Positions 1 to 64,000 are shown, numbered from the stretch's first letter. The stretch: 64,000 nt of DNA from a virus (IMGVR_UViG_3300017763_003471:62001-126000); one strand, 5' to 3'. Program-made: numbers and translations. The notes: generated by a model from the sequence alone, not told the origin.

Positions 1-722
1 TTAGTTGTAACTGTAATTACTACTATCTGTCCTTCCCTATGTGTGTCGTTAATATTCATCATAAAGTTTTCAATAAATCTAAACATATGGTCAGTAAAGA
101 ATGGCTCACCACCTAGCAAACTAAAATTAACATGACCTTGACCTACAAGTTTCTTATCCCAATATCCGTTTAATATCTCTAGTGTCTTATCAAACATTGC
201 ATCATCTGTATCTGGAAATCTTTGACCTAATTCTTTCTGCCAACGAGTACTAGAACCTCCCCAACAATAAACACATGCCATATTACATTTGTTTGTTAGT
301 TCTATTTCAATGAATTTAAAGTTATCATGTTCCATCATATCTCTATGGAACTGTTTTGCTAAATTAGGGTGATTACCTGCTTTTTGATATTGTCTTTTTA
401 AACGATAATCAAAATTCTTATTATATTCAGTTCTTACACTACTGCCACCAGCATCTTCTGTTCGCCAACAACCTACGCAATCAGGACTACGTGTACCTCC
501 ACTTAAGTCGTACTTTCTTTTTTGAAGTATAGGGTGATTGAATAAGAAATCTTCTGTAAGTGTATTGTAATCAAACGTAAGTTCTTCCATTTGTTTGTTA
601 GTGTATTGAGTTTTACAACACCACTTAACAGTTCTTTGAGGTAAGGATATAATAATGTCGTTCCAGTTTTTGAAACACATCGTATTATATAAATTATGAA
701 GATTTGGATTTATTTCATTCAT
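1..722 (-). CDS. Radical SAM protein, 3' end outside window
   Basis: Open frame that starts at 722 and runs off the left edge; the start ATG overlaps the stop of the upstream gene (ATGA). About residue 140 it has CNMACVYC, the CxxxCxxC motif that binds the radical SAM 4Fe-4S cluster. Before it lie a CC pair and a CVGCW motif, the same layout as the second radical SAM protein at 46097-47449. This N-terminal architecture occurs in unassigned radical SAM proteins of marine phages. Substrate unknown. The C-terminal part, which might hold auxiliary cluster cysteines, is not in the window. Confidence 0.85.
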   Translation of the reverse strand, partial: MNEINPNLHNLYNTMCFKNWNDIIISLPQRTVKWCCKTQYTNKQMEELTFDYNTLTEDFLFNHPILQKRKYDLSGGTRSPDCVGCWRTEDAGGSSVRTEYNKNFDYRLKRQYQKAGNHPNLAKQFHRDMMEHDNFKFIEIELTNKCNMACVYCWGGSSTRWQKELGQRFPDTDDAMFDKTLEILNGYWDKKLVGQGHVNFSLLGGEPFFTDHMFRFIENFMMNINDTHREGQIVVITVTT

Positions 723-3700
723 TTTTTCTTTGTACGCAGTAGCTTCTTAGGTTTCCCATCTTTATCTACATCATTACCAAACTTTTTAGCTTGTTTAGTA
801 ATTTCGTTGGGACCTACGTCAACTGTGGTATTTATGCCAGGTATAACTCTACCTACGCCAGCCGCTTCTTTAACATCTTTTATACTGAATACTTTCTTAA
901 TTGCTTGTACTGTATTTGCAGTAGTTGTTGTGTGATGTTTAATTGCGATACCACCAGCTGATTGCCATGCATCGACATTCTTACCAAAATCATCAATTAA
1001 CAAGTTCGGACTACCGTCTTGTTTCTTTGCATATTTTGATTTATTATGGTCAATGATAACTTGCTCTGGTTTAAAGAAGTTTAAATGTTTTCTCACCCAC
1101 TCTCTTTTGCCAGGATCTACGTTAGGATCATTTGCTAGAGGGGAACTCAATATTTTGTATTTGCCTTTTACAGCCTTAATTGTTTGTAGCAAATCTTTGT
1201 AACCTGCTAATGTTGGCAAGTCTTCCCAGAAGTTTGGAGTACTAACAATCTTCTTTAATGCTTTGCCTATATCTTTCTTTGGTATATCTCTGTATGACTT
1301 AACGCCAACTAGTCTAGCCCATTCATTGAAGAAATCAACTAACACACCGTCCATATCAACATATACATCTGGTGTAGATGTCTCTGCTTCTGTTGTCGTT
1401 GTTGGCTTTGTACTTTTCTTATTCTTAAAACTATCGTACTTATTTTTTGCCCAATTATATGCCGCACCTGTTGATGTAACTCCACCTGCTATCTTAGGTG
1501 CAGGGTCATTTCTCAGAAACTTCGCTACATGAGGTGCCGCCATTCTGGCGCCATGTGCTATTGCTTGTCCAACAGGAACTATCCATTCATCTGTCTTATC
1601 TTTATCTAAACCTTTTTCTATTGCTCCCATGTAATCAGGTATCTTTGTCTTAACCCATGGGCCTCTGTGCATAAATCTTGCACTCATCATAACATTTACA
1701 CCACGTAATTCTTCTGGATCAAATATCATTACTTGATATTGTCTCTTTTCATTATCAACACCTACTACTTCTACATTCATTTCATCATACTTCTTACCTT
1801 TGTAAGTAATACCATGTCCTGTCATAAATCTAGCAACCGCTTCGAATAGTGCATTTTCTCTAACTGGAACTTTGCTTAGTAGTTGTTCTTTGCTTAGTTT
1901 ATAGTTAGATTTCATCCACTCATCTTTTAAATCAGCAATCATCTTACCAAGATTAGGACCAGCTACATAACCTCTTGCTAGTAAGTCTTTACCATTGATT
2001 GGGAAGTCTGGTTGTTCAAATCCGTGTACTGCATCATATACATCATTCTTACCATGCATGTTTGCCCATGCAAGTAAATGGTCTTGTGATGCACCATTGA
2101 TAATCATATCTTGTGCTTGTTTTGAATTTATGTTTTCACCTTTGTGCTTGATTAAGAAGTCAAACATTTCTCTATCGTAATTGCTCATCTTCCAATCTCT
2201 TGCAATACCACTACTGTCTAGCATTCTTGCAAGTGCAATAATAGGTCCTGTAGGCTCACCTAGTTTAGCTGGATTGATACCTTCAAGTCCAATCTTACTT
2301 GATACGCCTGTCTTGTTCATCCACTCAAGTGCTTCTTTGGCACTTGAACCCATTAACAATTTGCCCATTTCTTGCCAAATTCTTTCAACAGATAAACCTG
2401 TCATACCGTCTGCATTATCTTTGATTGCATTTAATGTAGTATCGTCCCACTTTGGACTATCTAACTTAGATTGAAATCTAAAGTATCTTAAGATACGCAA
2501 ATAATCTTCTTTAATTCTTTCTTCTGGATCCCCTACGAACCTACTTACTTTATCTTGTAAATCGTCCATACCACCATTGTAATCATGTACTGTACCGTCC
2601 ATGTCCATTGACATTGCGTTATATGTTAAATCTCTACGTTTAGCATCTTCTTCCCATGAACGTACAAATTCTACATCAGCATGTCTACCATCTGTATTTG
2701 TATCTGCACGTAAAGTTGTTATTTCAAAATCTTCTCCATCAATAACCGCAGTTATTGTACCATGTTCTATACCTGTAGGAATATGTCTTATGCCTTCTTT
2801 ATCAAGCATAGCAATCATTTCATCTGGTGTAGCATCTGTGGCAAAGTCAATATCTTTTGGCTCTTTACCTAATGCGATATCTCTTACTGCACCACCAACA
2901 ATTCTTACTTCGTGTTTATTCTTTTTAAATACTTTATCTAGTTTACGAATAGCAGGAGTAATAATAGATTTAACATTTAGTGCTTCTTCGTTTAAAGACT
3001 CTTTAACTGAGTTTTCAAACATTGCGTTACCAAACATATCAAGGTATTCTTTTTCAAGTTCACGATAGTTTATTTTGTTGTTTGTTTGCATTGCTAACAT
3101 TTGTGCATAATAGGCAAGTGAATGTCTTAACTTACCATTAGTTTCTTTATACTTTCTTGTAAGTATCTTATGCATCATCTGTGCCATATTCATATATGCT
3201 TTTTTATTAATTACATGACTCATCTTACGAGAAAGTAAACCGAAAGGTGTTTCTTCTTTTATGCCATGCTTTTTTCTAAATGCTTTTAAATCATCTTCTG
3301 CATCTTTACTTCTTTTCTTAGATGCCTCAGCATCTTTAACATTATCTGAATGCATCTTATCTACATCGATGCCTTTTCTTTTTAATTGCTTGTTAAAGTT
3401 TGCTCTGCCAAACGCCTCACCTACTACTGATTTTAATTCATCAGGTAATAATGCGATAGCTTGTTTTCTTAAATTCTGATTACCCTTTGTCATAACTCTT
3501 AGCAAATCTGCCTTTTCAGCATGATACACTTTAGCAAACTTAGGGTCATTTTTACCTATGTCTCTGCCATTGCTTATCAAGTCTGCATACTTAACTGTTT
3601 GTGCTTCTGCACTAACACCTGCTAGTTTATCTCTATCGATTGCTTTACGTGTTTTTCTATTACCGTCTTCTGGTTTACTTACATCAGTAAGTTCAACAAC

Positions 3701-4384: not shown

Positions 4385-5893
4385 TTATGCAACATTTCTA
4401 TCTAAGCTGGCCATATTTGCGCCTGCATTTTTGCCAAAGTCAGGCTTTTTTAATTGCATTTGTTTTACAATTTTCATGAAACCTTCTTTAGTTCTTAGAT
4501 ATTGTTTAATCATTTCTTTTTGTTCTGGTCTTGCTATATCATGATACGCCATTGTAAATCTTTTTGCAAGTTCAGGTGTAACTTTAATGTCTCCACCATC
4601 TTTAAACTTAATTGGGAAAGGCATATTGTCATTACGTGCGGCTAAGTTATCTAATACTCTTAAAGGATCAGATTGTTTAACAGGCTTACCTTTTTCATAT
4701 TCTACGATTAAATAAAAATCATCTTCTGAAACTTCATCTTCTGACATACCATCACCTACTGCTGGTTGTTTCTTAGCAAGTTTCTTATTACCATAACCAC
4801 CTAAACTAGATAGAGGTTTATTGCTACTGATTTTGTATTCACCTAAGTCTGTCTGCATATCAACTAGAGTAGCGGCCATATCACCCATTGCTAGAGATAC
4901 TTTGTCGCCTCTTTTGTATAAGAAAAATTTAACGCCTGCTGGAATACCTTCTGCACTGATTTGTTGCATTGAAAATTTTGATAGATTATATTTCTCTGAC
5001 TTAGTACGTCTACCCATTTTAAATGGCTTATACTTCTCACCACGTTTAAATGCTGAGTCATACCAAAGATGTACAGTATCACCTGCTTTTAGTTCATTGA
5101 ACACTGCAAGTTTTTCTTCATCAGAAATTCTTCTCATTGGTTTAGGTGTTTCATCTTCTTTAACAGTACCTTCTTTATCTCCCACTTTTTTACCAGGAGC
5201 ATTATAAACTGTTCCACCTTTTTGTTTTTGCATACTTCTCATTTTTTCTTTTGAGCCTTTAGCAACATACTCACCATCAATAACAAGTCCGTACATTGTA
5301 GATTTTGGTATTGGCATTTCTTCTACTTTTGTTTCTTTTACATACCCTTTTGATTTTAATTGTTTCTCAAAACTTTCTAAGTCTTTTGCATTCTTAAAAG
5401 TACTCATGTCATAGAAACGAGAACCATCTTTATGTGTTTTCTCTCCATCATGAAAGTTTACAACATACTTTGCTTTGCCTACATTTGACATAGTATTATA
5501 TGTTTTAGACTCTACAGGAAATTCTTTATTAGATGTTTTAAAATTCTTTTTACGCATAACAGTTTTAGCAACTAAGTCTAATTCTTCGTTGTCTCTGTCC
5601 CACTTCAATACAAAAGGAATATTGATATCGCTTTCTAAGTCTTTCATTACTGCCTCAGCATCAGGGCCCATTTGTGCAATAGGTTTGCCCCAACGTCTGT
5701 ATTCTTTTCTAAACATGTTTACTAATTCTGACATTGTAATTGGATTACCATTACGGTCATCATTTGCTCTATCAATAAAATGCCTAGTAAATTCTACATC
5801 GATATTAAGACTAGCGAATAATTTGTCTAGTGCTTTCTCTAAAGCATTTAACTGAGCATTAGTTATCGGTTGTTCTACTTCATCTAATCTCAT
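4385..5893 (-). CDS. Unknown protein with MRL-type N-terminus, possible head-packaged protein
   Basis: 502 residues, no function recognised. It starts MRLDEVEQP, like its two neighbours. Residues ~35-120 form a compact section (HFIDRANDDRNG, then a predicted beta part IPFVLKWDRDNEELDLV) that could be a small enzyme fold. The rest is lysine-rich and charged, with a C-terminal KKPDFGKNAG segment. It overlaps the upstream gene by 4 bp (stop 5893/start region) and is 15 bp from the fusion gene downstream, so the three are probably one late operon read from the GATAAATA motif at 7038. High charge fits an internal head protein; this is inference. Confidence 0.7.
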   Translation of the reverse strand: MRLDEVEQPITNAQLNALEKALDKLFASLNIDVEFTRHFIDRANDDRNGNPITMSELVNMFRKEYRRWGKPIAQMGPDAEAVMKDLESDINIPFVLKWDRDNEELDLVAKTVMRKKNFKTSNKEFPVESKTYNTMSNVGKAKYVVNFHDGEKTHKDGSRFYDMSTFKNAKDLESFEKQLKSKGYVKETKVEEMPIPKSTMYGLVIDGEYVAKGSKEKMRSMQKQKGGTVYNAPGKKVGDKEGTVKEDETPKPMRRISDEEKLAVFNELKAGDTVHLWYDSAFKRGEKYKPFKMGRRTKSEKYNLSKFSMQQISAEGIPAGVKFFLYKRGDKVSLAMGDMAATLVDMQTDLGEYKISSNKPLSSLGGYGNKKLAKKQPAVGDGMSEDEVSEDDFYLIVEYEKGKPVKQSDPLRVLDNLAARNDNMPFPIKFKDGGDIKVTPELAKRFTMAYHDIARPEQKEMIKQYLRTKEGFMKIVKQMQLKKPDFGKNAGANMASLDRNVA

Positions 5894-7008
5894 TTTATTT
5901 TTCCTTGTGTGTTTTTCAAAACTTTTATTTCTTTTTGCAATACTTCTATCGCTTTTGTTAGTTTTGATAATTCTTGTTCGTGTTTGAAGTCGGTCTTATC
6001 ACCGTCTCTTTCGTTCTTTTCTACATCTGCTAGTAAGGCTGATAACACATTGTCTGCTTGTGGATATTTAGTTTTTAAATGAACCAATGCTCTTGCAGTT
6101 TTTGGGTCGAACCCTTTTAGTAAATCTGCATCATCTTCCTTTTCATCCATTTTAGATAGTTTGGCCGCTATAGCCATCTGTCTACGTTTTGCTTTGCTCT
6201 TACCCTTAAATTGGGGAGCATCACTTTTGTAGAAATCTTTTACTACATCACCCATTGGTGTTCTCTTAGTAATCTTTTCTTCAACATCGTGTGTAAGTTG
6301 GGCTTCCATTATCGCTTCGTATAATGATGGCTCTTCCCAATTTTCACTTGTAATACCGCTTTGTAATTTGTTTTGAAACAACTGCATTACGTCTTTTGGA
6401 ATATTAGGATTGCCATATAAATCTTGTAAAATCTGTTCTAATTGTGACTCGTCTGCTTTAGCAATCATGTCACGAATTTGTGTAGCACTATTGATTGCTT
6501 TTCCTCTAAGTGTAAACTTAAATGTAGGAACTGTAGTAATATATGAATGGTCACGTAATGGTTTTGCATTCTTCATACCTGGCCATTTCTGCATGTGAGC
6601 AGGTTGACCTTTCTTAGCACCTCTAGTTAATAGAGCCATACCAACGTCTGGAAAGTTAAATCTAGGGTCTTCTGCCATATCTTTCTCTGATACTGCATAA
6701 ACTATTACTGTTTTATCTGGGTCAAATCTATCTGTAATCTCTGTAGCAACATAAGGAACTTTACACTGAACGATAGAATTAGGGTCTACTCCAGCTAATT
6801 GCATCATCTTTTTCTTCTCTTGGAATGTAAAAGGTGACTTATGATTATCTGTTTTATCAGAAGATGCTATAAACACCTGTGCGCCTTTGTATTTTTGCTT
6901 TAGATACTTGAATACTTTCCCGTGCCCAATGTGAAATGGGTGAAATCTTCCTGGATAAATCACAACAAGATTAGTATTTTCGTTCTCAAATAAGTCGTAT
7001 AGTCTCAT
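5890..7008 (-). CDS. NadM/cytidylyltransferase-like nucleotidyltransferase with long C-terminal tail
   Basis: 372 residues. Residues 14-190 carry the cytidylyltransferase-like signature: GRFHPFHIGH (HxGH at 26-29), as in nicotinamide-nucleotide adenylyltransferases of the NadM type, which make NAD from NMN and ATP. The C-terminal ~140 residues are charged and include FKGKSKAKRRQMAIAAKL and a terminal coiled coil. The N-terminus MRLYDLFENEN resembles the T4 Alt start MELITELFDE and has an L-x-E site, so it may be a capsid-targeting leader cut by a prohead protease. First gene behind a strong terminator and a late promoter motif 30 bp upstream. Confidence 0.82.
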   Translation of the reverse strand: MRLYDLFENENTNLVVIYPGRFHPFHIGHGKVFKYLKQKYKGAQVFIASSDKTDNHKSPFTFQEKKKMMQLAGVDPNSIVQCKVPYVATEITDRFDPDKTVIVYAVSEKDMAEDPRFNFPDVGMALLTRGAKKGQPAHMQKWPGMKNAKPLRDHSYITTVPTFKFTLRGKAINSATQIRDMIAKADESQLEQILQDLYGNPNIPKDVMQLFQNKLQSGITSENWEEPSLYEAIMEAQLTHDVEEKITKRTPMGDVVKDFYKSDAPQFKGKSKAKRRQMAIAAKLSKMDEKEDDADLLKGFDPKTARALVHLKTKYPQADNVLSALLADVEKNERDGDKTDFKHEQELSKLTKAIEVLQKEIKVLKNTQGKIK

Positions 7009-7037
7009 GTTTTGTTCCTATAATTAACTGCTATGTG

Positions 7038-7045
7038 TATTTATC
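7038..7045 (-). promoter_or_regulatory. T4-like late promoter motif
   Basis: GATAAATA on the minus strand, 30 bp before the nucleotidyltransferase start at 7008 and just downstream of a rho-independent terminator. The position suits initiation of the three MRL-type genes as a late unit. Confidence 0.6.
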
Positions 7046-7053
7046 TTTAAATT

Positions 7054-7080
7054 AAAAAAAAGACCCACACGGAGTGGGCC
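7054..7080 (-). terminator. Rho-independent terminator
   Basis: On the minus strand a 7-bp stem (GGCCCAC / GTGGGTC, one G-U pair) with a 5-nt loop is followed by eight T. It ends the small-gene operon above (7113-7842 and further) before the late unit at 7008. Confidence 0.85.
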
Positions 7081-7112
7081 AAGTTGTGCTTGAAAGGAAT
7101 CAAAACAAGCTA

Positions 7113-7241
7113 TTAAAAGAATTCAGTAACTTTCAGAGTTGGATTAAAGAAATAGTATATATTCGCTGAAATCATAAGACCTGTAAGTAATAGGCCAAAG
7201 ATAGTACTTTTAGTAAATTTTATGTTATTTGGATGTTGCAT
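7113..7241 (-). CDS. Small single-pass membrane protein (42 aa)
   Basis: A strong ribosome site (AGGAGG, 6 bp before the ATG at 7241) supports this 42-residue protein. Residues ~13-32 form one hydrophobic segment (STIFGLLLTGLMISANIYYFF) flanked by a basic N-terminus, so it should sit in the inner membrane with the N-terminus inside. It starts 8 bp after the stop of the 65-aa gene upstream. No family recognised. Confidence 0.75.
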   Translation of the reverse strand: MQHPNNIKFTKSTIFGLLLTGLMISANIYYFFNPTLKVTEFF

Positions 7242-7249
7242 ATCGCCTC

Positions 7250-7447
7250 CTAGTCTAAATCACACTGCCAATAAGTGCCGTCAAACCAAGCACGTAGACC
7301 ACCTAACGGATAATCTTTATGCTCAAAGAATATAAAAGGACGACCCTTTGCATCTATTTTCTGTTCTATGATACTAGCCTCGTCCATTGGTATTAGACGT
7401 TCTTCACCAGTATCGCTATAATAAGCACTATTAAAAATTCTAATCAT
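7250..7447 (-). CDS. Small unknown protein (65 aa)
   Basis: Start chosen at 7447 (MIRIFNSAYYSD), where ATG overlaps the stop of the upstream gene as TAATG; a longer in-frame start at 7492 would lie inside that gene. The sequence predicts mixed alpha/beta with no motif. Part of the early small-gene operon behind the promoter at 7875-7902. Confidence 0.75.
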   Translation of the reverse strand: MIRIFNSAYYSDTGEERLIPMDEASIIEQKIDAKGRPFIFFEHKDYPLGGLRAWFDGTYWQCDLD

Positions 7448-7842
7448 TATGCGGCCTCGTTTATATATTTTTCTGACATAGCACGAATGCAAATTTTATA
7501 GTTCTCTTGTGTAGGCTTCATACCGTTTTGCTTACACAATTTCTTTGCTTGAGGAGTCATAAAACCTTTTGCCTCTAGCATGTCTAATGGTGACTTACCA
7601 GCTTTGTAACCTTCAGCAAATTCTTCAACTGTGAAGTTTTTAACTAGGAAGTTCTTAAAAGCACCTTGAAAAAATACGTACTTGAAACGAGCAATGAATA
7701 GTTCTACTGGCATTCCAATACGTGAAGGATGAATTTTATCTTTGCCATAAACTTCTTCATATGAAGGCTGACCTTCATATGTACCGTGATACATTAAGTA
7801 TCCACCGTGATAATGAAATTTTTCTTTGTCAAACTGTGTCAT
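7447..7842 (-). CDS. Unknown protein (131 aa)
   Basis: Soluble protein, no membrane segment. The N-terminal half is aromatic-rich (FHYHGGYLMYHGTY), and the C-terminal half contains GYKAGKSPLDMLEAKGFMT, suggestive of a small helical domain. It is the first gene after the sigma70-type promoter with the palindromic spacer at 7875-7902, so probably early expressed. Family unknown. Confidence 0.75.
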   Translation of the reverse strand: MTQFDKEKFHYHGGYLMYHGTYEGQPSYEEVYGKDKIHPSRIGMPVELFIARFKYVFFQGAFKNFLVKNFTVEEFAEGYKAGKSPLDMLEAKGFMTPQAKKLCKQNGMKPTQENYKICIRAMSEKYINEAA

Positions 7843-7874
7843 AATGATTCTCTCCTTCTCTTGATTACTTAACT

Positions 7875-7902
7875 AATATAGCACGATTCGTGATATTGTC
7901 AA
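7875..7902 (-). promoter_or_regulatory. Early sigma70-type promoter with palindromic spacer
   Basis: Minus strand: -35 TTGACA (7897-7902), 16-bp spacer, -10 TATATT (7875-7880). The spacer holds CACGAATCGTG, an 11-bp inverted repeat shared with other promoters in the window and containing a GANTC site. Confidence 0.8.
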
Positions 7903-7905
7903 GTT

Positions 7906-8088
7906 TTAGTCGAAAAAATTACCTTCTACCCACTTATATCCTGTCGTGCCTTCTTCGAACCAAGCACCGTCTTTTGAAACAGGATTAGACCAAAGCAATT
8001 CTTTATTTGCTTTCTCCATAACATCAAGACCTTTCTCTGCTTTTGCTTTGAAAGTCTTACCATATGCTTTAAACGTAAATGTAATCAT
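7906..8088 (-). CDS. Small unknown protein (60 aa)
   Basis: Starts at 8088 with GGAG 8 bp upstream. A beta-rich N-terminus (MITFTFKAYGKTFKA) is followed by a short helix and a tryptophan-rich end. Lies just upstream of the promoter at 7875-7902 and after the 156-aa gene, probably cotranscribed with it. No family recognised. Confidence 0.7.
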   Translation of the reverse strand: MITFTFKAYGKTFKAKAEKGLDVMEKANKELLWSNPVSKDGAWFEEGTTGYKWVEGNFFD

Positions 8089-8101
8089 TATATCTCCTAT
8101 A

Positions 8102-8572
8102 TTAAACTAGACTTGTACGGGTATCGCCTTCAATTTTAAGGACGCATTCGCCTGTACTAAGGTTATCAACATTACCAACAAACTTACCAATAAGATGTTC
8201 ATATTCTGTTCCTTCCTGGAATCCACCAACGATATAACCACGTTTCATATACCAATCGCCTTTGCTATTCTTACGAATAACATTATCAAGGTATAATGTT
8301 TCCCAACCTTTTGGGTCGTACTCTTTTTGTGATTTTACAAATTCTGACTCAAAGTTACCATCAACTTGATAACAATCAAAGAAGTTTTCTTCGTATGCAT
8401 TGTTTGAAGATGTAACTAAATCTATAACAGATGAAGCCTCATCATAACTGCTGGCTTCGACAACATAGGTGCTACCACCTTTGTTCTTCCAATAAGAACT
8501 CTCACCGTCCCAATCTGAATTATGAGCGGCATAGTTTTCACGGATAGCAGTTTCGATAACATATTTGTTCAT
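8102..8572 (-). CDS. Unknown acidic protein (156 aa)
   Basis: Start set at 8572 (MNKYVIETAIRENYAAHN) because AAGGAGA lies 7 bp upstream and the earlier in-frame ATGs would fall at the transcription start of the promoter at 8597-8624. Acidic and aromatic-rich; strongly acidic small early proteins are sometimes DNA mimics or host inhibitors, but no family evidence supports that here. Confidence 0.75.
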   Translation of the reverse strand: MNKYVIETAIRENYAAHNSDWDGESSYWKNKGGSTYVVEASSYDEASSVIDLVTSSNNAYEENFFDCYQVDGNFESEFVKSQKEYDPKGWETLYLDNVIRKNSKGDWYMKRGYIVGGFQEGTEYEHLIGKFVGNVDNLSTGECVLKIEGDTRTSLV

Positions 8573-8596
8573 AACTTTCTCCTTCATCATGTATAT

Positions 8597-8624
8597 AATA
8601 TAACACGATTCGGAGATATGTCAA
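8597..8624 (-). promoter_or_regulatory. Early sigma70-type promoter, palindrome half-site
   Basis: -35 TTGACA (8619-8624), 16-bp spacer, -10 TATATT (8597-8602). The spacer keeps CGAATCGTG, one complete half of the palindrome; the other half is degenerate. Confidence 0.78.
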
Positions 8625-8639
8625 GTTTTTAGGTATGAT

Positions 8640-9206
8640 TTATTTGTTCAAAATAGTGCTAAAAGGCTTGCTATTTTTCTCTCTTTTTATGTCTTTTACA
8701 GAACCCATGTTTATTAGTACTGTATCTCTGAAATGTTTGCGTTTATTTGCATATGAATGGTGACTAGATGTAGATGGAACAAATGACATTGCTCTATTTT
8801 CTTTCCATTCTACGTTTCCAACAATTCTTGCTTTTGGATCACTACTTTCGTGGAATACTGTACCTTGATTGAACTTACCAACATATAATACTGTTGATAA
8901 TCGTTTCCAAGGAGAATCATTATGATTCTTATATTCAGCATGTGGATACTGTCTATTTGCCCATATGATATAATCATTAGGTGTCATTTCTTTTGCTGAT
9001 GCATTTGGTACTTGTTCAAGTAAAGTATTACGTATCTTTTCTAACTCATTACCAAAATGTTTTCTTATTTCATCTGTTTCTGGTAGCCCAGATAAACCAC
9101 CTGGGTAAGTTTCCATGTTTGTCTTAATTCTATCGTATAACTCTTGAGGTAAAAAGTTATCTATAATTGCATGGGGGAACGGGTTCTCATAATACTTTAT
9201 ATACAT
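8640..9206 (-). CDS. 2OG-Fe(II) dioxygenase, prolyl-4-hydroxylase-like
   Basis: 188 residues. The double-stranded beta-helix signature is visible: HND at about residue 92-94 in YKNHNDSPWKRLSTVLYVG gives the first two iron ligands, HHSY near 150 the third, and an Arg nearby (HFRDTV) should bind 2-oxoglutarate. The N-terminus FPHAIIDNFLP is typical of phage oxygenases of this group. It hydroxylates an unknown substrate. The start overlaps the IscU stop (TAATG at 9206), so the two are translated together. Confidence 0.82.
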   Translation of the reverse strand: MYIKYYENPFPHAIIDNFLPQELYDRIKTNMETYPGGLSGLPETDEIRKHFGNELEKIRNTLLEQVPNASAKEMTPNDYIIWANRQYPHAEYKNHNDSPWKRLSTVLYVGKFNQGTVFHESSDPKARIVGNVEWKENRAMSFVPSTSSHHSYANKRKHFRDTVLINMGSVKDIKREKNSKPFSTILNK

Positions 9207-9586
9207 TATCTGTGGTACTTTCTTTTAAAATCTTCTATTGCGGATTTAATCGCATCTTCGGCTAAAACACTGCAATGTATTTTTACTGGAGGTAAAGATA
9301 ACTCATCTACTATGTCCATGTTTTTAATTTCTTGAGCCTCTTTCAATGTCTTACCCTTAACCATTTCAGTTACTAAACTTGAACTTGCTATTGCACTTCC
9401 GCAACCATAAGTTTTAAATTTAGCATCTTTTATAACTCCGTCTTCAACTTGTATCTGTAAACGCATTACGTCACCACATGCCGGCGCTCCTACCATCCCA
9501 GTTCCAACTTTATCTACACTGGGATCGAAACGACCTACATTACGTGGATTGTTATAATGGTCCATTACTTTTTTACTGTATGCCAT
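9206..9586 (-). CDS. iscU: IscU Fe-S cluster scaffold
   Basis: 126 residues, full length, colinear with bacterial IscU. All three cluster cysteines are present (C37 in PACGDV, C62 in TYGCGS, C105 in KIHCS), with D39 and the HscA-binding motif LPPVK at 98-102. It should assemble 2Fe-2S clusters using sulfur from a host IscS, since no cysteine desulfurase is seen. The other Fe-S genes lie 13 kb away at 22.7-24.6 kb. A TATAAATA late motif is 27 bp upstream. Confidence 0.96.
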   Translation of the reverse strand: MAYSKKVMDHYNNPRNVGRFDPSVDKVGTGMVGAPACGDVMRLQIQVEDGVIKDAKFKTYGCGSAIASSSLVTEMVKGKTLKEAQEIKNMDIVDELSLPPVKIHCSVLAEDAIKSAIEDFKRKYHR

Positions 9587-9612
9587 ATCTTTTATGTGTA
9601 GTGATAATATAG

Positions 9613-9620
9613 TATTTATA
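9613..9620 (-). promoter_or_regulatory. T4-like late promoter motif
   Basis: TATAAATA on the minus strand, 27 bp before the iscU start at 9586, immediately after the transporter gene and its hairpin. Confidence 0.6.
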
Positions 9621-9625
9621 TGGAA

Positions 9626-9651
9626 ATGCTCCCCTATTTCTAGGAGAGCAT
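9626..9651 (-). terminator. Terminator hairpin after the symporter gene
   Basis: Nine-bp stem ATGCTCTCC / GGGGAGCAT (one G-U) on the minus strand, right after the stop at 9659. The following T run is short, so termination may be partial. Confidence 0.6.
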
Positions 9652-9658
9652 CATTTCT

Positions 9659-11146: not shown

Positions 11147-11179
11147 AAATTGTCCTCCTTAGACATTTCTTATATTTTT

Positions 11180-11256
11180 TGGCGGGAGTGAAGGGACTCG
11201 AACCCTCGGCCTCTTGCGTGACAGGCAAGCGTTCTAACCAACTGAACTACACCCCC
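11180..11256 (-). tRNA. tRNA-Asp(GTC)
   Basis: Complete cloverleaf on the minus strand: acceptor GGGGGTG/CACTCCC, anticodon loop CTGTCAC in a CTTGC/GCAAG stem, T-loop TTCGAGT, discriminator G and encoded CCA. Confidence 0.95.
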
Positions 11257-11282
11257 AATAATCTAATGATTATTAAGAGTAA

Positions 11283-11312
11283 ATTATATCATACTTTAGT
11301 AGTAAAAGTCAA
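11283..11312 (-). promoter_or_regulatory. Sigma70-type promoter for tRNA-Asp and symporter
   Basis: -35 TTGACT (11307-11312), 18-bp spacer, -10 TATAAT (11283-11288). The -35 precedes the tRNA-Asp gene by about 50 bp. The spacer lacks the CACGA palindrome. Confidence 0.6.
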
Positions 11313-11315
11313 TAC

Positions 11316-11510
11316 TTATTTGACTTGAATTTCTACTTCTCTTGTTGTTTTTACGGGAATACAGTCTATTGTTGCATTTTTGTGAGTAACTAAGACTGAG
11401 GCCGTTGATAATTCTTCTACACAGGCATCTAATGTATCAAACGTGTCTATGTGATAATAGTCCATGTTTTGATTTCCTGCTAATTGTAACCATATGAGTA
11501 TCCATACCAT
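11316..11510 (-). CDS. Small protein with N-terminal hydrophobic segment (64 aa)
   Basis: AAGGAGAGG stands 6 bp before the ATG at 11510. The first ~12 residues (MVWILIWLQLAG) are hydrophobic and may be a short signal or anchor; the rest has two cysteines and a beta-strand C-terminus. It lies between tRNA-Asp and tRNA-Ala. No family recognised. Confidence 0.7.
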   Translation of the reverse strand: MVWILIWLQLAGNQNMDYYHIDTFDTLDACVEELSTASVLVTHKNATIDCIPVKTTREVEIQVK

Positions 11511-11530
11511 ATTCCTCTCCTTTTATGTTA

Positions 11531-11606
11531 TGGTGGAGCATGAGGGAGTCGAACCCACGACCTCCTGAATGCAAATCAGGCGCTCTCCCAACTGAGCTAA
11601 TGCCCC
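11531..11606 (-). tRNA. tRNA-Ala(TGC)
   Basis: Acceptor GGGGCAT/ATGCTCC, anticodon loop TTTGCAT between CCTGA and TCAGG, normal T arm, discriminator A with encoded CCA. Confidence 0.96.
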
Positions 11607-11613
11607 TTAGAAA

Positions 11614-11688
11614 TGGAGCGGGCGATGAGATTCGAACTCACGACAACCTCGTTGGCAACGAGGGACTCTACCACTGAGTTACGCCCGC
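11614..11688 (-). tRNA. tRNA-Gly(GCC)
   Basis: Acceptor GCGGGCG/CGCCCGC, anticodon loop TTGCCAA between CCTCG and CGAGG, discriminator T and encoded CCA. It lies 7 bp from tRNA-Ala and shares its promoter. Confidence 0.96.
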
Positions 11689-11719
11689 TTTTCTATTGAC
11701 TTCGTATTATTTATCATGT

Positions 11720-11748
11720 ATAATATCAGTATATAAATATATTGTCAA
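11720..11748 (-). promoter_or_regulatory. Sigma70-type promoter of the tRNA cluster
   Basis: -35 TTGACA (11743-11748), 17-bp spacer, -10 TATTAT (11720-11725), reading into tRNA-Gly. The plus-strand late motif at 11732-11739 lies inside this spacer, so the divergent promoters overlap. Confidence 0.65.
11732..11739 (+). promoter_or_regulatory. T4-like late promoter motif for the plus-strand cassette
   Basis: TATAAATA, 12 bp before the ATG at 11751. Transcription would start close to the start codon, giving a nearly leaderless message. Confidence 0.5.
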
Positions 11749-11750
11749 GC

Positions 11751-15511: not shown

Positions 15512-16194
15512 TATTGGCAACGGGTGCTCCTGGAAGTAGATGGAGTGGCACCTTACGTGCTATTAGTACTAATCCAAATATTAATATTAGTGATGAAAGA
15601 AGCGAACTAGAATACGCCAGAGACTATGTTACACCTAATGGTAAAACAAAACAGTATGGTTGGCATCGAGGTGCTTATTGGGGTCCATATCATAATCAAG
15701 GTCAAAGATTTGATAATCTACAAGATATGACAAAAGATGAAATTATAAAAGAATTCAAAAAGCCATATAAAGATTTTAACTATGGTGTTAAGATAATAAA
15801 AAGTCATTGGTTTGCATATCATCTTCCTTTACTACAAGACTTATTTCCAAAATCAAAGATTATGGCTGTGTATATGCCATCTGATTTTTGTTTTGATTGG
15901 TGGAGAAACAAAGTAGGTGGTTGGGATATATCGTATCCACATTATGATTGGTACGAAAATGATGCACGTATGATTAAACAAATTAATATAGAAAATACAA
16001 ATATAGAAAACTTCTTTGATTTACAACAACTATCAATATATGAAGTGTTTGAAAAACTTGGTCTACCATCTGAATTTAGAAGTGAAGAAGAATTAATTTC
16101 ACAAGATTCTAAATTGAAAGATTTAACTAAGAACAAAGATTATAAAAAAGTTCTGGATAACACAGTACATCGTAGTTTTACTGGTATAAAATAA
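15493..16194 (+). CDS. Sulfotransferase-like P-loop protein 3
   Basis: 233 residues. LILATGAPGSRWSGTLRAI is nearly the same loop as in protein 2, and IIKSHWFAYHLPLLQDLFPKSKIMAVY repeats its second motif, followed by FDWWRNKVGGWDISYPHYDW where protein 2 has YRGWFGAGGFDITYPKY. The two are clearly paralogues. Stop and next start overlap (TAATG). Confidence 0.72.
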   Translation: MDGQDLILATGAPGSRWSGTLRAISTNPNINISDERSELEYARDYVTPNGKTKQYGWHRGAYWGPYHNQGQRFDNLQDMTKDEIIKEFKKPYKDFNYGVKIIKSHWFAYHLPLLQDLFPKSKIMAVYMPSDFCFDWWRNKVGGWDISYPHYDWYENDARMIKQINIENTNIENFFDLQQLSIYEVFEKLGLPSEFRSEEELISQDSKLKDLTKNKDYKKVLDNTVHRSFTGIK

Positions 16195-16781
16195 TGAAAG
16201 ACATACCTAACTCTGGAACATATGTAATGATGTTGAGTGGCGGACTTGATAGTGCGTTGCTCTCTTATCTAGTTCTAAAAGAGTTACCAAATACAAAGCT
16301 GGTCTTAAGTAGTGTATGTCATCAATCTTTAAATTACTATAATCTATTTAATGTAATAGCAATTACGAATTGGTTACATGCAAGATTTCCAAACAGAATT
16401 GAAGAACATTATATTGGATACTATAAAGACAGAAATGAAGCACGAAACAACAGAACCAAAACTAGAGATAGACTTATTAATAAACATCAAGCATCAGGTA
16501 TCTTAACTGGTATGACACTTAATCCCTCTGAATTAATGACAGAAGGACGTGATGAAAGTAGAGACAAAAAGCGAGAAATTAGAGTAATCTCATCACATGG
16601 GGTATATCATTATCGTCCGTTTATAAATAGTACTAAACAAACGGTAGCAGAATTATATAACGAACATAATTTACAAGACCTAGCAAACTTAACTATCAGT
16701 TGTGAAAGTGAAAGTCTGCCTAGACCATGTAAAGAATGTTGGTGGTGTAAAGAGAAGTATTGGGCTTTCGGTTACTATTAA
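16194..16781 (+). CDS. QueC-like PP-loop ATPase
   Basis: 195 residues. SGGLDS at 15-20 is the PP-loop (N-type ATP pyrophosphatase). The C-terminus has four cysteines, C170-x8-C179-x2-C182-x2-C185, the same spacing as the zinc site of 7-cyano-7-deazaguanine synthase QueC. QueC turns a carboxylate into an amide and then a nitrile via an acyl-AMP. No FolE, QueD or QueE is next to it, so it may instead amidate or nitrilate another acid made in this cassette. Family is clear, substrate is not. Confidence 0.85.
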   Translation: MKDIPNSGTYVMMLSGGLDSALLSYLVLKELPNTKLVLSSVCHQSLNYYNLFNVIAITNWLHARFPNRIEEHYIGYYKDRNEARNNRTKTRDRLINKHQASGILTGMTLNPSELMTEGRDESRDKKREIRVISSHGVYHYRPFINSTKQTVAELYNEHNLQDLANLTISCESESLPRPCKECWWCKEKYWAFGYY

Positions 16782-51272: not shown

Positions 51273-51275
51273 GTG

Positions 51276-52061: not shown

Positions 52062-52652
52062 ATGAGCCTAAAAAGGAAATATCTTTCCCACTCTACCGCT
52101 TTGACCTTTTTCATTGCGTTACTTTTGGGAATCATGTTAACTACATCTGCGATTGCGGCAGATCCTATCGTTACAGATTCTACTAGTAATAGTACAGTCA
52201 AGTCTGATACGGATACTGATACAACTGTAAAAAGCCCACCACCTAGTGCTATATCGCCTTCTATTAGTGGAAGTAATTCTGATTTATGTACTGTTGGTGT
52301 TAGTGGCGCAGTACAAACGCAGATTTTAGGAGTATCTACAGGTCAAACCTACAGGGATGCCAATTGTGAAAGACTTAAACTTTCCAAAACACTATACGAT
52401 ATGGGCATGAAGGTTGCGGCGGTATCAGTAATGTGTCAAGACCGAAGAGTTTTTGATGCTATGGCTATGGCAGGGACACCCTGTCCGTACAATGGTAAAA
52501 TTGGCGAAGAAGCATACGAATTGTGGAAAAAGAATCCACAAAAGATGCCTAAAAAGGTTGATGTAGATAATGAGAAAAAACTTGCTAAAGAAGGAATGGT
52601 CGAAGGGCTTACTATCGGCGGTATTCTTGCTGTTCTGGCTTTCGTTCTGTAG
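52062..52652 (+). CDS. Exported protein (196 aa)
   Basis: Start at 52062, where AGGAG lies 8 bp upstream; an in-frame ATG at 52032 lacks one. Signal peptide: basic start MSLKRKY, hydrophobic core, cleavage after SAIAA. The mature part is Ser/Thr/Asp-rich and then has four cysteines (C near 93, 111, 135, 148). The last residues TIGGILAVLAFVL are hydrophobic. Its 3' end overlaps the next gene by 83 bp. Confidence 0.78.
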   Translation: MSLKRKYLSHSTALTFFIALLLGIMLTTSAIAADPIVTDSTSNSTVKSDTDTDTTVKSPPPSAISPSISGSNSDLCTVGVSGAVQTQILGVSTGQTYRDANCERLKLSKTLYDMGMKVAAVSVMCQDRRVFDAMAMAGTPCPYNGKIGEEAYELWKKNPQKMPKKVDVDNEKKLAKEGMVEGLTIGGILAVLAFVL

Positions 52653-55395
52653 CACAGTATTCGCATCAGATACCACTGCACCAACTAACCCAACAACTAC
52701 TAGTCCAAATACCTTAGATTTAGATGATGGTACAATAGGCCAACCATTTGGTAATTGTCCTGCAGGCACTTCTGCCGCATATGTTTATGGATCTGGAAGT
52801 ACTATAAGGTGGGGAGAGTGCCAAAATACATTTGCTATTTCTTATGCAATCAATCAAGCACTACAAGGCACAGGCGTAAGCATAGATAAAGTTCACTATC
52901 AATGGAAGTATATTCACTGTTTCAATACACCTGGTAACTTTTGTAGTGCCAATATCAGCAATAGAGCAAACACTACAACAGGTGAAGTCACCGATGATAC
53001 ATATTGGGACGAATTAGTTGTAGTTGTAGAAGTCACAGATTCTAGTGGTAATGTAGTTGAAACAAAAACTTGGACAATGGATACATGGTATCAATGGAAT
53101 TCAAGTAATAGCCACAGTACTAATGAAGTCGCAGAAGGTACAACTGTCTGGCAGATACACGAAGACAATATAGAAATTTACAATCACATAGATAAAGTAG
53201 GAACAATACGTACACCAAATTCAGTAGGTGATGTTCGTTTTAGAATTAATGGTTACGATAAAGGTAATTGGGACGGGTACTACGGACCTATCGTAAAAGA
53301 TATAAAAACTTGGTTTACTTATAGAGCAAATCCTTGTAATGATACTGCACTATATGATCCAAGTTGTCCAGGATATGCTACTGCATATGCGGCCCAACAA
53401 TATGACCAAAATTGTGCCGCTGATGCTTTATACGATTCAGGTTGTCCTGGTTATGCTACTGCTTATTTTAATCAACAATGTAGTTTAGATGCAACACACG
53501 ATGCGGCTTGTCCGGGATATGCAGAAGCAATCTATACTCAACAATGTACTGCTAATCCTCTTTATGATAGTGGGTGTACGGGTTATGCCGCGGCCTACTT
53601 AGCACAACAATGTGGCTTAGATGCACACTACGATAGTTCATGTACAGGTTATAGTAGTGCAATTACAGAATTAACAAGCAATGGTACAAACGTTGCAGGA
53701 GCAGGCAGTGACTTTGTTGAAGTAACTAAAGCAAATGACCCAACACTTTATTGGATATTATATTATAACCAAGCAGAAATAAACGCAGGTGGCTGGAAAT
53801 GGGAATGTACAGGTACGAATTGTACTGATGATTATGGAACTATCAGTAGTGTTTCGGTTCAAGGTAGTGGAACTGGAACTCATATGTTCTTATATACAAA
53901 AAATGCAAGTGGAAATACTGTTCAACCAGACAATGGTAAGACTTATAGATTTTTTAAAACTTCATACATGACAACACAATGCGATTCAAATACACTATTC
54001 AATCAAATGTGTACAGGTTATGCAGAAGCATATGCAACATATATATTCAATCAGGCATGTACTGCCAATCCTTTATATGATTCAGAATGTACAGGTTATG
54101 ATGCGGCATATTTAACACTTCAATGTGAATCTAATCCATTATATGATAGTTCATGTACTGGATATGCGGCGGCTTTCTTAACATATCAATGTGAGCAAAA
54201 TCCATTGTATGATGAAAGTTGTACAGGATATGCTGATGCATATTTTAATCAGCAATGTGATTTAGATCCACTTTATAACTTTCAATGTACAGGATATCAA
54301 GATGCATACTTCAATCAACAATGTCAACAAAACCCACAATATGATGAAATGTGTCCAGGTTATGTTGCACCTGTAGTAGAAACAGATATAGATGATATTA
54401 TTGATGATGGTACAGGTACTGGTGATTCAGTTGTTGATAATATTATTGAGGCACCAGAAGTTACTATTCCTGGTAATATACCCGGAGTAGAAATTATTAC
54501 AGTACCAGAAATAGAAGTTGAAATACCAGATATTACACCAGTAGAACCAGAAGTAATAGAAGTTCCTGTTCCAGATGTTACAGAACAACTTGAATTAGAA
54601 ATTGAGATGGAACTAGAGATGGAAATTGAAGCAGAAATGGAAATCGATATAGAAATTCCAACACAAGATACATCTGATGATACAATGGAAGTAGAAGTAG
54701 AGACAGAAGAAAGTGAGTCAGAGTCAATAGAAGATATTGAAGTAGAAAGTGAAAATGAAAGTACAGAAAATGAAACTACAGAAGAAAGTACAGAAGAAGA
54801 ATCCACAGAAGAAGAAAATACAGAAGAAGAATCAACTGAGGATGAAGGTAGTGACGAAGAAAATGAATCTGAGGAAAATACTGATGAATCTGAGAATGAA
54901 GAAAGTGAGGAAGAGTCAGAAGAAGAAGTAGAAGAAAAAGAAGAAGAAGAAAAGGAAGAAAAGTCAGATAAAAAAGAAAAGAAAGAAGAAAAGAAAGATG
55001 ATAAGAAAGATGAAAAATCTTCCGATAAAGAAGAAACTACTTCAAATAAATCTACAAAAAAGAAAATGACTAAAGAAGAAAAAAGAAAAGCAAAATTAAA
55101 AAAGATGAAAGAAATCATCAAAAACAAATTGAAAGAGTTAGCAGATGTTATGGGCAAAGCCGTTTCATTAGAACAACAACAGGCATTACAAGCCCAAATA
55201 ACTGCACTTATAAATTATGTACCAGGTTTTAAAGCATATGGGGAGTATTATATACCAGGTGTAGAATTTTATCAATATGAAGAAATCTATAAAGATAAAA
55301 AGATACCTGAAAACCAAAGAGGCCTAAGAAACGGTCTCGCAAATGAGATATTGCATGAGAAAATGGTTGATATGCAATACGAGGGGATGGAATAA
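52570..55395 (+). CDS. Giant exported protein with Cys-rich repeats and acidic tail (941 aa)
   Basis: A signal peptide (MRKNLLKKEWSKGLL, hydrophobic core, cut after STVFA) sends it out of the cytoplasm. Residues ~30-250 form a beta domain; ~255-598 hold eleven ~22-residue repeats of the form C-x-x-NPLYDS-x-C-x-GYA-x-AY-x-x-QQ, split by a ~100-residue insert; ~690-830 is almost only Glu/Ser/Thr; ~830-870 is Lys-rich; the end (~880-941) is a conserved-looking globular piece with IPENQRGLRNGLANEIL. Regular Cys pairs suggest disulfides. Function unknown; adhesion or envelope coating is possible. Confidence 0.82.
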   Translation: MRKNLLKKEWSKGLLSAVFLLFWLSFCSTVFASDTTAPTNPTTTSPNTLDLDDGTIGQPFGNCPAGTSAAYVYGSGSTIRWGECQNTFAISYAINQALQGTGVSIDKVHYQWKYIHCFNTPGNFCSANISNRANTTTGEVTDDTYWDELVVVVEVTDSSGNVVETKTWTMDTWYQWNSSNSHSTNEVAEGTTVWQIHEDNIEIYNHIDKVGTIRTPNSVGDVRFRINGYDKGNWDGYYGPIVKDIKTWFTYRANPCNDTALYDPSCPGYATAYAAQQYDQNCAADALYDSGCPGYATAYFNQQCSLDATHDAACPGYAEAIYTQQCTANPLYDSGCTGYAAAYLAQQCGLDAHYDSSCTGYSSAITELTSNGTNVAGAGSDFVEVTKANDPTLYWILYYNQAEINAGGWKWECTGTNCTDDYGTISSVSVQGSGTGTHMFLYTKNASGNTVQPDNGKTYRFFKTSYMTTQCDSNTLFNQMCTGYAEAYATYIFNQACTANPLYDSECTGYDAAYLTLQCESNPLYDSSCTGYAAAFLTYQCEQNPLYDESCTGYADAYFNQQCDLDPLYNFQCTGYQDAYFNQQCQQNPQYDEMCPGYVAPVVETDIDDIIDDGTGTGDSVVDNIIEAPEVTIPGNIPGVEIITVPEIEVEIPDITPVEPEVIEVPVPDVTEQLELEIEMELEMEIEAEMEIDIEIPTQDTSDDTMEVEVETEESESESIEDIEVESENESTENETTEESTEEESTEEENTEEESTEDEGSDEENESEENTDESENEESEEESEEEVEEKEEEEKEEKSDKKEKKEEKKDDKKDEKSSDKEETTSNKSTKKKMTKEEKRKAKLKKMKEIIKNKLKELADVMGKAVSLEQQQALQAQITALINYVPGFKAYGEYYIPGVEFYQYEEIYKDKKIPENQRGLRNGLANEILHEKMVDMQYEGME
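53334..54363 (+). repeat. Eleven Cys-x-GYA protein-repeat units
   Basis: Five units, an insert (~53660-53960) and six more units inside the 941-aa gene. Each encodes the pattern C..NPLYDS.C.GYA.AY..QQ. Nucleotide copies have drifted while the residues stay, so this is protein-level conservation. Confidence 0.85.
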
Positions 55396-62955: not shown

Positions 62956-64000
62956 TATTTTATACCTATTAACATAAATCTATTATACCTATCGCAATCC
63001 TTAGTTCCTAAGAATAGTACTTTAGACATAGTATACTTTTTCTCTAACTCTGTCAAGTCCTTAACTGTGTTTATGTGTTCGTCTATTTCATGAAAATCGT
63101 TTGTTTGTATTGCTACTGTAGTACCTGGCTTAATTTTATTAAACCATTCTTCTGTCATATGCTCTGCACTTGTATTAATAACTAAATCATGCTTATCATA
63201 ATCATAACTATTTGCATCTGCTACTAAACCTGTGTATGTATCATTATACTTGTTCAATGCTTTACTAAATTTTATTGCTTGTTCATCAACATCTATATTA
63301 GTTACTTTATGCATTACGTTTTTCTTAACTGACCAAAAACTTGATATACCTAACCAACCACCTACAAATACTGCATCTTTAAATCTAGTGTCTAGTTTTA
63401 TTAAATTTTCTATTAACCATATTTTACTTTCTACTTGATAATTAGAATGAGCATCAATGTAGTTACAATCTGGTGCTTCTTTTACTGCACCCATCAACAT
63501 ACCAAAATAAGGATCTTGTTCACTTCCAAAGTATTCAAACATGAAATGTACACATCTTTCTGGATTGAATCTGTTCTTCGATCCACTATAAAGATATTGT
63601 AAAAACATTTGTAAATTTTCTGACTTATATTTCTTATCCCATATAAGTTTTTCAACTGCATTATAAATATTTTGTTGATGGTCTTTATTAGAATCCATAA
63701 CTGCAAGTCGCATCAAATCTATATCATCTGCATCTGGATGATTTACCCATTCAGCATATCGTTGAATACCATTTAGCATATATCTACCATCAGGGTATGT
63801 TGTATCGAATTCAACTATAGGCTGTGGTTTCCAATTCTTTCTTTGTTTGAACCAAGTGTTCAACCATTTCCAATTATTAATTCTGTGTAACTTATCACCT
63901 TTACCTACATTTACAGTACCGTAGTTTTCTCCCATGATAGAACCTGATAAGATTTCTGCACGAAAACCTACATCTTCTAATGGGTTCTTCCACTCTGATA
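62955..64000 (-). CDS. SAM-dependent methyltransferase-like protein, 5' end outside window
   Basis: The frame is open to 64000; the first Met inside is at 63935, but the codons before it (SEWKNPLEDVGFRAEIL) read as coding, so the gene probably starts beyond the edge. AVFVGGWLGISSFW (Rossmann G-loop), VTNIDVDEQAI (acidic ribose site), ADANSYDYDKHDLVINTS (motif II-IV) mark a class I methyltransferase. Target unknown. Confidence 0.78.
   Translation of the reverse strand, partial: SEWKNPLEDVGFRAEILSGSIMGENYGTVNVGKGDKLHRINNWKWLNTWFKQRKNWKPQPIVEFDTTYPDGRYMLNGIQRYAEWVNHPDADDIDLMRLAVMDSNKDHQQNIYNAVEKLIWDKKYKSENLQMFLQYLYSGSKNRFNPERCVHFMFEYFGSEQDPYFGMLMGAVKEAPDCNYIDAHSNYQVESKIWLIENLIKLDTRFKDAVFVGGWLGISSFWSVKKNVMHKVTNIDVDEQAIKFSKALNKYNDTYTGLVADANSYDYDKHDLVINTSAEHMTEEWFNKIKPGTTVAIQTNDFHEIDEHINTVKDLTELEKKYTMSKVLFLGTKDCDRYNRFMLIGIK

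What the first reader, a model, noticed from the sequence alone, without database searches (positions are those of the whole stretch)
1..64000. Complete avoidance of GCWGC (GCAGC/GCTGC) across the window
Reading every line on both strands I found no GCAGC or GCTGC, even across line breaks. The tetramers GCAG and GCTG are very common (by eye well over a hundred together) but always followed by A, G or T. GCGGC and GCCGC, less expected in AT-rich DNA, occur dozens of times, above all at Ala-Ala pairs, where GCG GC or GCC GC replaces the otherwise preferred GCA and GCT. This holds in coding frames of all phases and on both strands, so it looks like selection against a DNA word, most simply escape from a restriction enzyme with GCWGC specificity (that of TseI/ApeKI; BbvI reads GCAGC).
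Basis: partly seen in the sequence, partly recalled or inferred. Interest (0 to 1): 0.88.

Follow-up and report, generated by a model that had tools for sequence, protein, structure and literature searches.

The report
Phage genome spares only GG-bearing restriction sites
A giant marine-type phage has removed about a dozen restriction-enzyme target words from its genome but keeps nearly every copy that touches a GG/CC pair, and it carries the genes for swapping guanine for a 7-deazaguanine base, so its DNA letters alone appear to reveal where its chemical armour sits.

Summary
A codon-preserving shuffle of the 138.6-kb record expects 127, and the 342.6-kb relative (99.96% identical) also has none. 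GCWGC is one of about a dozen purged words, and most of the others survive only where a GG (CC on the other strand) overlaps their edge. In the 342.6-kb genome GATC has 295 sites, all GGATC/GATCC; GCGC 91/91; CGCG 31/31; CTGCAG 16/16; CTGAAG 42/42; CGACG 31/31. Of ten dinucleotide classes only GG/CC acts as a protector.

The phage encodes FolE, QueE, QueD and a TGT-fold protein resembling the DNA-guanine transglycosylase DpdA. Best reading: DpdA replaces guanines in GG with a 7-deazaguanine, so only sites without GG had to be purged.

Support: distant DpdA-carrying phages show the same GG protector. A related 203-kb contig without detectable DpdA purges GG-flanked and GG-containing sites too. 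CAjan, whose published motifs include GA, shows GA as protector.

Open points: a sister clade shows the GG footprint, but its fragments lack DpdA. Edge GG does not spare GCWGC here. The base chemistry and the host are unknown.

The parts
1..64000 (.). Genome-wide footprint, not confined to the window: GCWGC absent; GATC, GCGC, CGCG, CTGCAG, CTGAAG, CGTCTC and CGACG present only when GG/CC overlaps an edge of the word
   Evidence: Window counts with/without GG-CC, both strands: GATC 118/0, GCGC 50/0, CGCG 16/0, CTGCAG 8/0, CTGAAG 6/0, CGTCTC 5/0, CGACG 8/0, CTCTTC 9/1
52444..52449 (-). The single CTCTTC in the window without overlapping GG/CC (read GAAGAG on +; a CC lies one base away)
16194..16781 (+). 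Possible QueC-like PP-loop ATPase (195 aa, C-terminal Cys cluster CKECWWC). It is the only candidate deazaguanine-pathway gene inside the window; assignment is weak
   Evidence: Pfam QueC 8e-6, just over the cut-off; NCBIfam TilS 3e-6 and QueC 5e-5, both below cut-off; no QueC at E<=1e-3 in the 342-kb relative. The core genes lie upstream of the window in the record: QueE 46686-47582, FolE 47584-48261, g060 glycosyltransferase-like 48354-49436, flavodoxin 49433-49864, APRT 49866-50432, g063 50416-50868, purine permease 51129-52421, DpdA-like 52443-53984, all on the minus strand; the window starts at record position 62001

Best explanation
The genome is the footprint of two linked defences against restriction. 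(1) A phage TGT-fold enzyme (DpdA-like) probably exchanges guanines lying in GG dinucleotides for a 7-deazaguanine derivative made by FolE, QueD and QueE. This blocks many Type II enzymes wherever GG (CC on the other strand) overlaps their site. (2) Sites that contain or touch no GG stay cleavable and have been removed by selection over time: GATC, GCGC, CGCG, CTGCAG, CTGAAG, CTCTTC, GWGCWC, CGACG without GG, and AAGCTT and TCTAGA, whose edges cannot form GG. GCWGC is one of these words. In this lineage GG at its edge does not spare it, whereas GCGGC/GCCGC, which hold GG inside, are enriched threefold. Shown by computation: the depletion, the GG rule, the genes, the TGT fold, and the contrast with a related contig in which no DpdA was detected. 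Inferred: that the modified base is G and not the paired C, that both Gs are modified, which 7-deazaguanine it is, and which host enzymes acted.
For: Unbiased scan over 4-6-mers: 15 words (138.6 kb) or 32 words (342.6 kb) confined to GG/CC contexts, none for the other nine dinucleotide classes. Codon-preserving shuffle: HGATCD 0 vs 201 while GGATC/GATCC 120 vs 142; HGCGCD 0 vs 30 while protected GCGC 35 vs 41. Of 33 purged 6-mers only 4 contain GG/CC, against 43% of all words tested. Full 342.6-kb genome: 295 GATC, 91 GCGC, 31 CGCG, 16 CTGCAG, 42 CTGAAG and 31 CGACG sites, none without GG/CC. Genes: FolE, QueE, QueD in the 342-kb genome, TGT-like protein with DSGG[YF]Q and other invariants in 40 homologues. 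Its AlphaFold2 model (pLDDT 83) best matches tRNA-guanine transglycosylases in the PDB (6ygv E 1.7e-6; 1j2b 1.4e-5) and, among viral models, an annotated phage tRNA-guanine transglycosylase (Motura) and a phage nt-1 protein. Of 103 distinct distant DpdA-carrying loci, the 4 passing threshold all give GG/CC (L178 GATC 20/0, L204 GATC 12/0, L333 GCWGC 18/0, L318 GCWGC 9/0). Related 203-kb contig without detectable DpdA/Que genes: no GG protection (CTGCAG 0 vs 40 expected, GTGCAC 0 vs 24, GTAC 9 vs 574) and GG-containing palindromes purged (CCGG 32 vs 230, GGCGCC 0 vs 23). Positive control: CAjan, whose DpdA modifies GA and GGC (PMC8306585), shows GA as protector of CCGG (108/27 sites, p 7e-19).
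Against: A sister clade (about 75% PolB identity, 413 kb pooled) shows the same GG/CC rule for GCGC (119 sites/0), CGCG (56/0) and GCAGC (89/0), yet DpdA, FolE and QueE are missing at the syntenic place and from its 99.9-kb and 66.9-kb contigs. These are fragments of genomes that may reach about 340 kb, so the genes may lie elsewhere, but no clade-2-like locus appeared among QueD relatives. The DpdA-like family shows no profile homology to CAjan/9g DpdA. More distant DpdA relatives (PA5oct, Phosso, Vibrio 2.275.O) and phage 9g show no footprint. QueC is uncertain. GG at the edge does not rescue GCWGC here. The footprint is strand-symmetric, so G of GG and C of CC cannot be told apart.
Confidence: 0.74

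Rival explanations
1. GG/CC carries a protective modification, but not from DpdA: another enzyme shared by the whole lineage (e.g. a cytosine modification in CC, or an unrecognised system) does it, and DpdA modifies something else.
For: Clade 2 shows the GG rule without DpdA/FolE/QueE in the contigs at hand. The footprint cannot tell G from C.
Against: Distant DpdA loci (40-46% identity) show the same rule. A related 203-kb contig without detectable DpdA lacks it. No C5-MTase catalytic motif turned up in the ORFs of the record or the 342-kb genome (motif scans only). The NPPY-motif protein g068 is absent from clade-2 locus L099, which has the footprint.
Confidence: 0.17
2. One reading: plain restriction avoidance of GCWGC (and, separately, of each other word), the GG contexts being coincidental or enzyme-specific.
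For: GCWGC itself is absent with or without GG at its edge. AAGCTT and TCTAGA are purged where no GG is possible. The related contig without detectable DpdA shows plain avoidance.
Against: Seven or more unrelated words share the same GG exception, copies in GG context are near expectation, and no other dinucleotide does this.
Confidence: 0.05
3. Codon, composition or assembly artefact.
For: The genome is AT-rich and codon choice at Ala-Ala pairs shifts to GCC/GCG.
Against: The codon-preserving shuffle expects 127 GCWGC and 201 HGATCD, observed 0 and 0. The pattern recurs in roughly 30-40 other clade-1 contigs from different samples. The Ala-Ala shift is a consequence, not a cause.
Confidence: 0.01
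4. A host or phage methyltransferase of GGATC (AlwI-like) type explains the GATC pattern alone.
For: It would protect GGATC/GATCC.
Against: It does not explain GGCGC, CCGCG/CGCGG, CTGCAGG, CTGAAGG or CGACGG.
Confidence: 0.02

Closest known systems
7-deazaguanine DNA modification in phages (DpdA with FolE/QueD/QueE/QueC; phages 9g, CAjan, nt-1; Hutinet et al. 2019, PMC6884629)
   Same: FolE, QueE, QueD and a TGT-fold protein; the proposed role is protection from many restriction enzymes; the viral fold search returns a phage nt-1 protein
   Different: GG specificity inferred here; a 513-aa family of DpdA-like proteins without detectable profile homology to CAjan/9g DpdA; island also holds a GT4-like protein (g060), a conserved HRH-motif protein (g063), a flavodoxin and a purine permease; QueC uncertain
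Escherichia phage CAjan dPreQ0 at GA and GGC (cited in PMC8306585)
   Same: Sequence-specific modification by DpdA; the same avoidance scan recovers GA as protector of CCGG
   Different: Motif here is GG with any flanking base; the footprint here is complete and covers about a dozen words, in CAjan it is partial and covers one word strongly
Restriction-site avoidance in virulent phages (reviewed in PMC12707154)
   Same: Short, mostly palindromic words purged
   Different: Purging depends on whether GG overlaps the site, so avoidance and modification are read together
Cytosine hypermodification (CmoX 5-carboxymethylcytosine at GC, PMC12783734)
   Same: A dinucleotide-directed phage DNA modification; AMP-binding ligases are also present in this genome
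   Different: No C5-MTase motif found by the motif scans; motif GC rather than GG

Membership tests
Phage 7-deazaguanine (DpdA) DNA modification | TGT-superfamily base-exchange enzyme (DpdA) | tested here: met
   DSGG[YF]Q and other invariants in 40 homologues; pLDDT-83 model best matches TGT and archaeosine TGT and phage TGT-like proteins. Activity untested.
Phage 7-deazaguanine (DpdA) DNA modification | Sequence homology to a characterised DpdA | tested here: inconclusive
   hhalign against CAjan/9g DpdA not significant; PADLOC DpdA model does not match ours and only weakly matches CAjan/9g; structural match to a phage nt-1 protein
Phage 7-deazaguanine (DpdA) DNA modification | Precursor pathway FolE, QueD, QueE | tested here: met
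   FolE, QueE, QueD in the 342-kb relative
Phage 7-deazaguanine (DpdA) DNA modification | QueC (needed for preQ0-type bases) | tested here: inconclusive
   Weak PP-loop protein in the window; none at E<=1e-3 in the 342-kb genome
Phage 7-deazaguanine (DpdA) DNA modification | 7-deazaguanine present in virion DNA | not testable with these tools
   Needs mass spectrometry or nanopore sequencing
Phage 7-deazaguanine (DpdA) DNA modification | Motif-dependent protection from restriction | tested here: met
   Indirect, from avoidance: GG/CC is the only protecting dinucleotide
Restriction-site avoidance | Depletion beyond coding and composition constraints | tested here: met
Restriction-site avoidance | Host restriction enzyme of matching specificity | not tested
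   Host unknown
C5-cytosine hypermodification (TET/CmoX type) | Phage C5-cytosine MTase | tested here: not met
   Motif scans only: no SPPC/PCQ-type enzyme in ORFs of the record or the 342-kb genome; the one PPC hit in the record is thymidylate synthase

The most novel reading that the evidence does not exclude
GG is a previously undescribed DpdA target, and the base at GG is further hypermodified: the island pairs the DpdA-like protein with a conserved glycosyltransferase-like protein (g060) and a conserved HRH-motif protein (g063), possibly giving a glycosylated 7-deazaguanine. Alternatively, the sister clade achieves the same GG protection with a different, unknown system.
Probability: 0.2. 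Interest if true: 0.92.

Novelty: new variant of a known kind. Interest (0 to 1): 0.85.

Why it matters
If right, the place of a phage DNA modification can be read from sequence alone, by asking which dinucleotide rescues otherwise purged restriction words. That would let DpdA motifs be predicted for uncultivated phages that cannot be tested by mass spectrometry, and would give a named GG-specific enzyme family to test. It also shows the modification to be partial armour: the phage still had to purge every unprotected site of about a dozen specificities, which points to many restriction systems met over its history.

Tried and rejected
(1) A single GCWGC enzyme: too narrow. (2) AlwI-like GGATC methylation: explains GATC only. 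(3) GGC-only protector in clade 2: rejected, since HCGCGG is followed by T, C or A and GGCGC is preceded by any base. (4) g068 (NPPY, PHROG 'DNA methyltransferase') as cause: absent from clade-2 locus L099, which still has the footprint. (5) First AlphaFold2 model (13 near-identical sequences, pLDDT 54) gave no usable fold match; a 40-sequence alignment fixed this. (6) PDB searches by sequence profile found no DpdA relative. (7) PA5oct, Phosso and Vibrio 2.275.O, which carry distant DpdA homologues, show no footprint in 50 kb each. (9) Attempts to find DpdA or QueD of clade 2 through DpdA, g063 and QueD scans did not. (10) Several relevant papers (NAR 2020 on CAjan, NAR 2023, MMBR 2024) are not held. 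The library searches found no report of GG specificity or of reading a motif from avoidance, which is not proof that none exists.

Full report
Observation. The window contains no GCAGC and no GCTGC. A shuffle that keeps every protein and each gene's codon usage expects 127 GCWGC in the 138.6-kb record from which the window comes and gives at least 110 in 200 trials; the record has 0, while GCGGC/GCCGC are 171 against 57 expected. A 342,607-bp contig, 99.96% identical over the shared part, also has 0, with 411 GCSGC.

GATC is depleted about fourfold in the window, and all 59 remaining sites are GGATC or GATCC. The same exception holds for GCGC (only GGCGC/GCGCC), CGCG (only CCGCG/CGCGG), CTGCAG, CTGAAG, CGTCTC, CGACG, GAGCAC and, with one site excepted in the record, CTCTTC. 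Scanning all 4-6-mers against all ten strand-symmetric dinucleotides, GG/CC is the only class that acts as a protector: 15 words in 138.6 kb and 32 in 342.6 kb, against none for the other nine. GG followed or preceded by any base works, but GG must overlap the edge of the word: CCGATC, where the CC lies outside, is purged (1 against 8.7). Sites protected by the first G of GG (CGCGG, CTGCAGG) and by the second G (GGATC, GGCGC) both survive, which suggests that both Gs matter. Protected copies are near their expected number (GGATC/GATCC 120 vs 142; protected GCGC 35 vs 41), while unprotected ones are gone (HGATCD 0 vs 201, HGCGCD 0 vs 30, DCGCGH 0 vs 23, DCTGAAGH 0 vs 45, DCGACGH 0 vs 37). AAGCTT (0 vs 31) and TCTAGA (3 vs 39), whose edges cannot form GG, are purged outright.

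GCWGC is one of these words, with a twist. In this lineage it is absent even when GG overlaps its edge (GCTGCC 0 vs 15.6, GCAGCC 0 vs 15.0), while GCSGC, with GG inside, is enriched. Either a GCNGC enzyme is blocked only by an internal GG, or a GCWGC enzyme ignores an edge GG. In the sister clade GCWGC does occur, always with GG/CC, and 100 of 136 counted copies have it on both sides.

Genes. The record is a fragment of a tailed-phage genome. Upstream of the window, next to DNA polymerase B, lies an island with QueE, FolE, a glycosyltransferase-like protein, a flavodoxin, an adenine phosphoribosyltransferase, a conserved HRH-motif protein, a purine permease and a 513-aa protein with the TGT signature DSGGYQ. 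QueD lies elsewhere in the 342-kb genome. A weak QueC-like gene is in the window. An AlphaFold2 model of the 513-aa protein (pLDDT 83) best matches tRNA-guanine transglycosylases and, among viral models, an annotated phage tRNA-guanine transglycosylase (Motura), a phage nt-1 protein and further phage queuine tRNA-ribosyltransferases. Phage nt-1 is reported to carry 7-deazaguanines in its DNA (PMC8306585). I therefore call it DpdA-like; its activity is not shown.

Tests of the link. (a) Clade-1 relatives from many samples, fetched by DpdA, PolB or QueD, show essentially no unprotected GATC, GCGC, CGCG or GCWGC. (b) Of 103 distinct distant DpdA-carrying loci, the four that pass the threshold all name GG/CC and none names another class. 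(c) A related 203-kb contig in which neither DpdA nor the pathway genes were found has heavy purging but no GG protection: CTGCAG 0 vs 40, GTGCAC 0 vs 24, GTAC 9 vs 574, and GG-containing words are purged as well (CCGG 32 vs 230, GGCGCC 0 vs 23). (d) In CAjan, whose DpdA is reported to modify GA and GGC, the same scan returns GA as protector of CCGG (108 of 135 sites, p 7e-19). phiKZ and P-SSM2 give nothing; KVP40 gives one weak hit (GTCGAC 5/0, p 8e-4) at the looser threshold.

What does not fit. A sister clade has the GG rule for GCGC, CGCG and GCWGC but lacks the island at the syntenic place and in all contigs at hand. These contigs cover at most about 100 kb, so DpdA may lie elsewhere, but another GG/CC modification cannot be excluded. 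In that clade GATC is almost fully purged, although the few copies left mostly touch GG (30 of 32). Distant DpdA carriers PA5oct, Phosso and Vibrio 2.275.O show no footprint, which could mean no restriction pressure or another motif. The footprint is symmetric between strands, so a modified C in CC would look the same.

Status of each step. Shown by computation: depletion, GG rule, gene content, TGT fold, contrast with the related contig lacking detectable DpdA. Inferred: G is the modified base, DpdA does it, the base is a 7-deazaguanine, both Gs are changed, and host Type II enzymes were the selecting agents. The names of enzymes cutting these words (MboI, HhaI, PstI, AcuI, EarI, BsmBI, TseI, HindIII, XbaI) are from general knowledge.

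Noticed in passing
Contigs of L072-L127 (clade 2), G017 (L255-L259) and G001 (L129-L132): Sister clade without AGCT (0 in 331 kb) and almost without GATC, with GCGC/CGCG/GCWGC only in GG/CC context, and without the DpdA island in the contigs held; source of its GG protection unknown.
   Followed up: partly
Record 28849-36681 (L003:8849-16681, minus strand), conserved in clade 2: Cluster of tryptophan-halogenase-like, beta-ketoacyl synthase, fatty-acid desaturase, AMP-binding ligase and MoxR/DUF2201-type proteins; unusual cargo for a phage.
   Followed up: no
Record 5279-24091 (L002/L003, plus strand): Run of several radical-SAM proteins with a NodU-like carbamoyltransferase, an Asp/Asn hydroxylase-like protein and a weak glycosyltransferase hit; purpose unknown.
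   Followed up: no
window 12265-17893 (+): Plus-strand cluster with an AMP-binding fragment, a weak sulfotransferase-like protein and the QueC-like PP-loop protein.
   Followed up: no
Record 50416-50868 (g063) and 48354-49436 (g060): Both travel with DpdA across the family; g063 (motif HRHIFHF, 63-76% identical in distant phages, no Pfam hit) and g060 (GT4-like, weak Glycos_transf_1) may be unrecognised parts of the modification system.
   Followed up: partly
G018 (L425-L435), 202,706 bp: Related contig without detectable DpdA and with extreme purging of GTAC (9 sites against 574 expected), and also of CTGCAG, GTGCAC, CAGCTG, CCGG and GGCGCC.
   Followed up: partly
342-kb relative G014: All 3 GAGCTC sites and 9 of 11 GTGCAC sites carry GG/CC on both sides, while for GATC one side suffices; protection may need both strands for some enzymes.
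   Followed up: no
window 11180-57657: Nine tRNA genes (Asp, Ala, Gly, two Leu, Thr, Trp, Arg, Glu) in the window.
   Followed up: no
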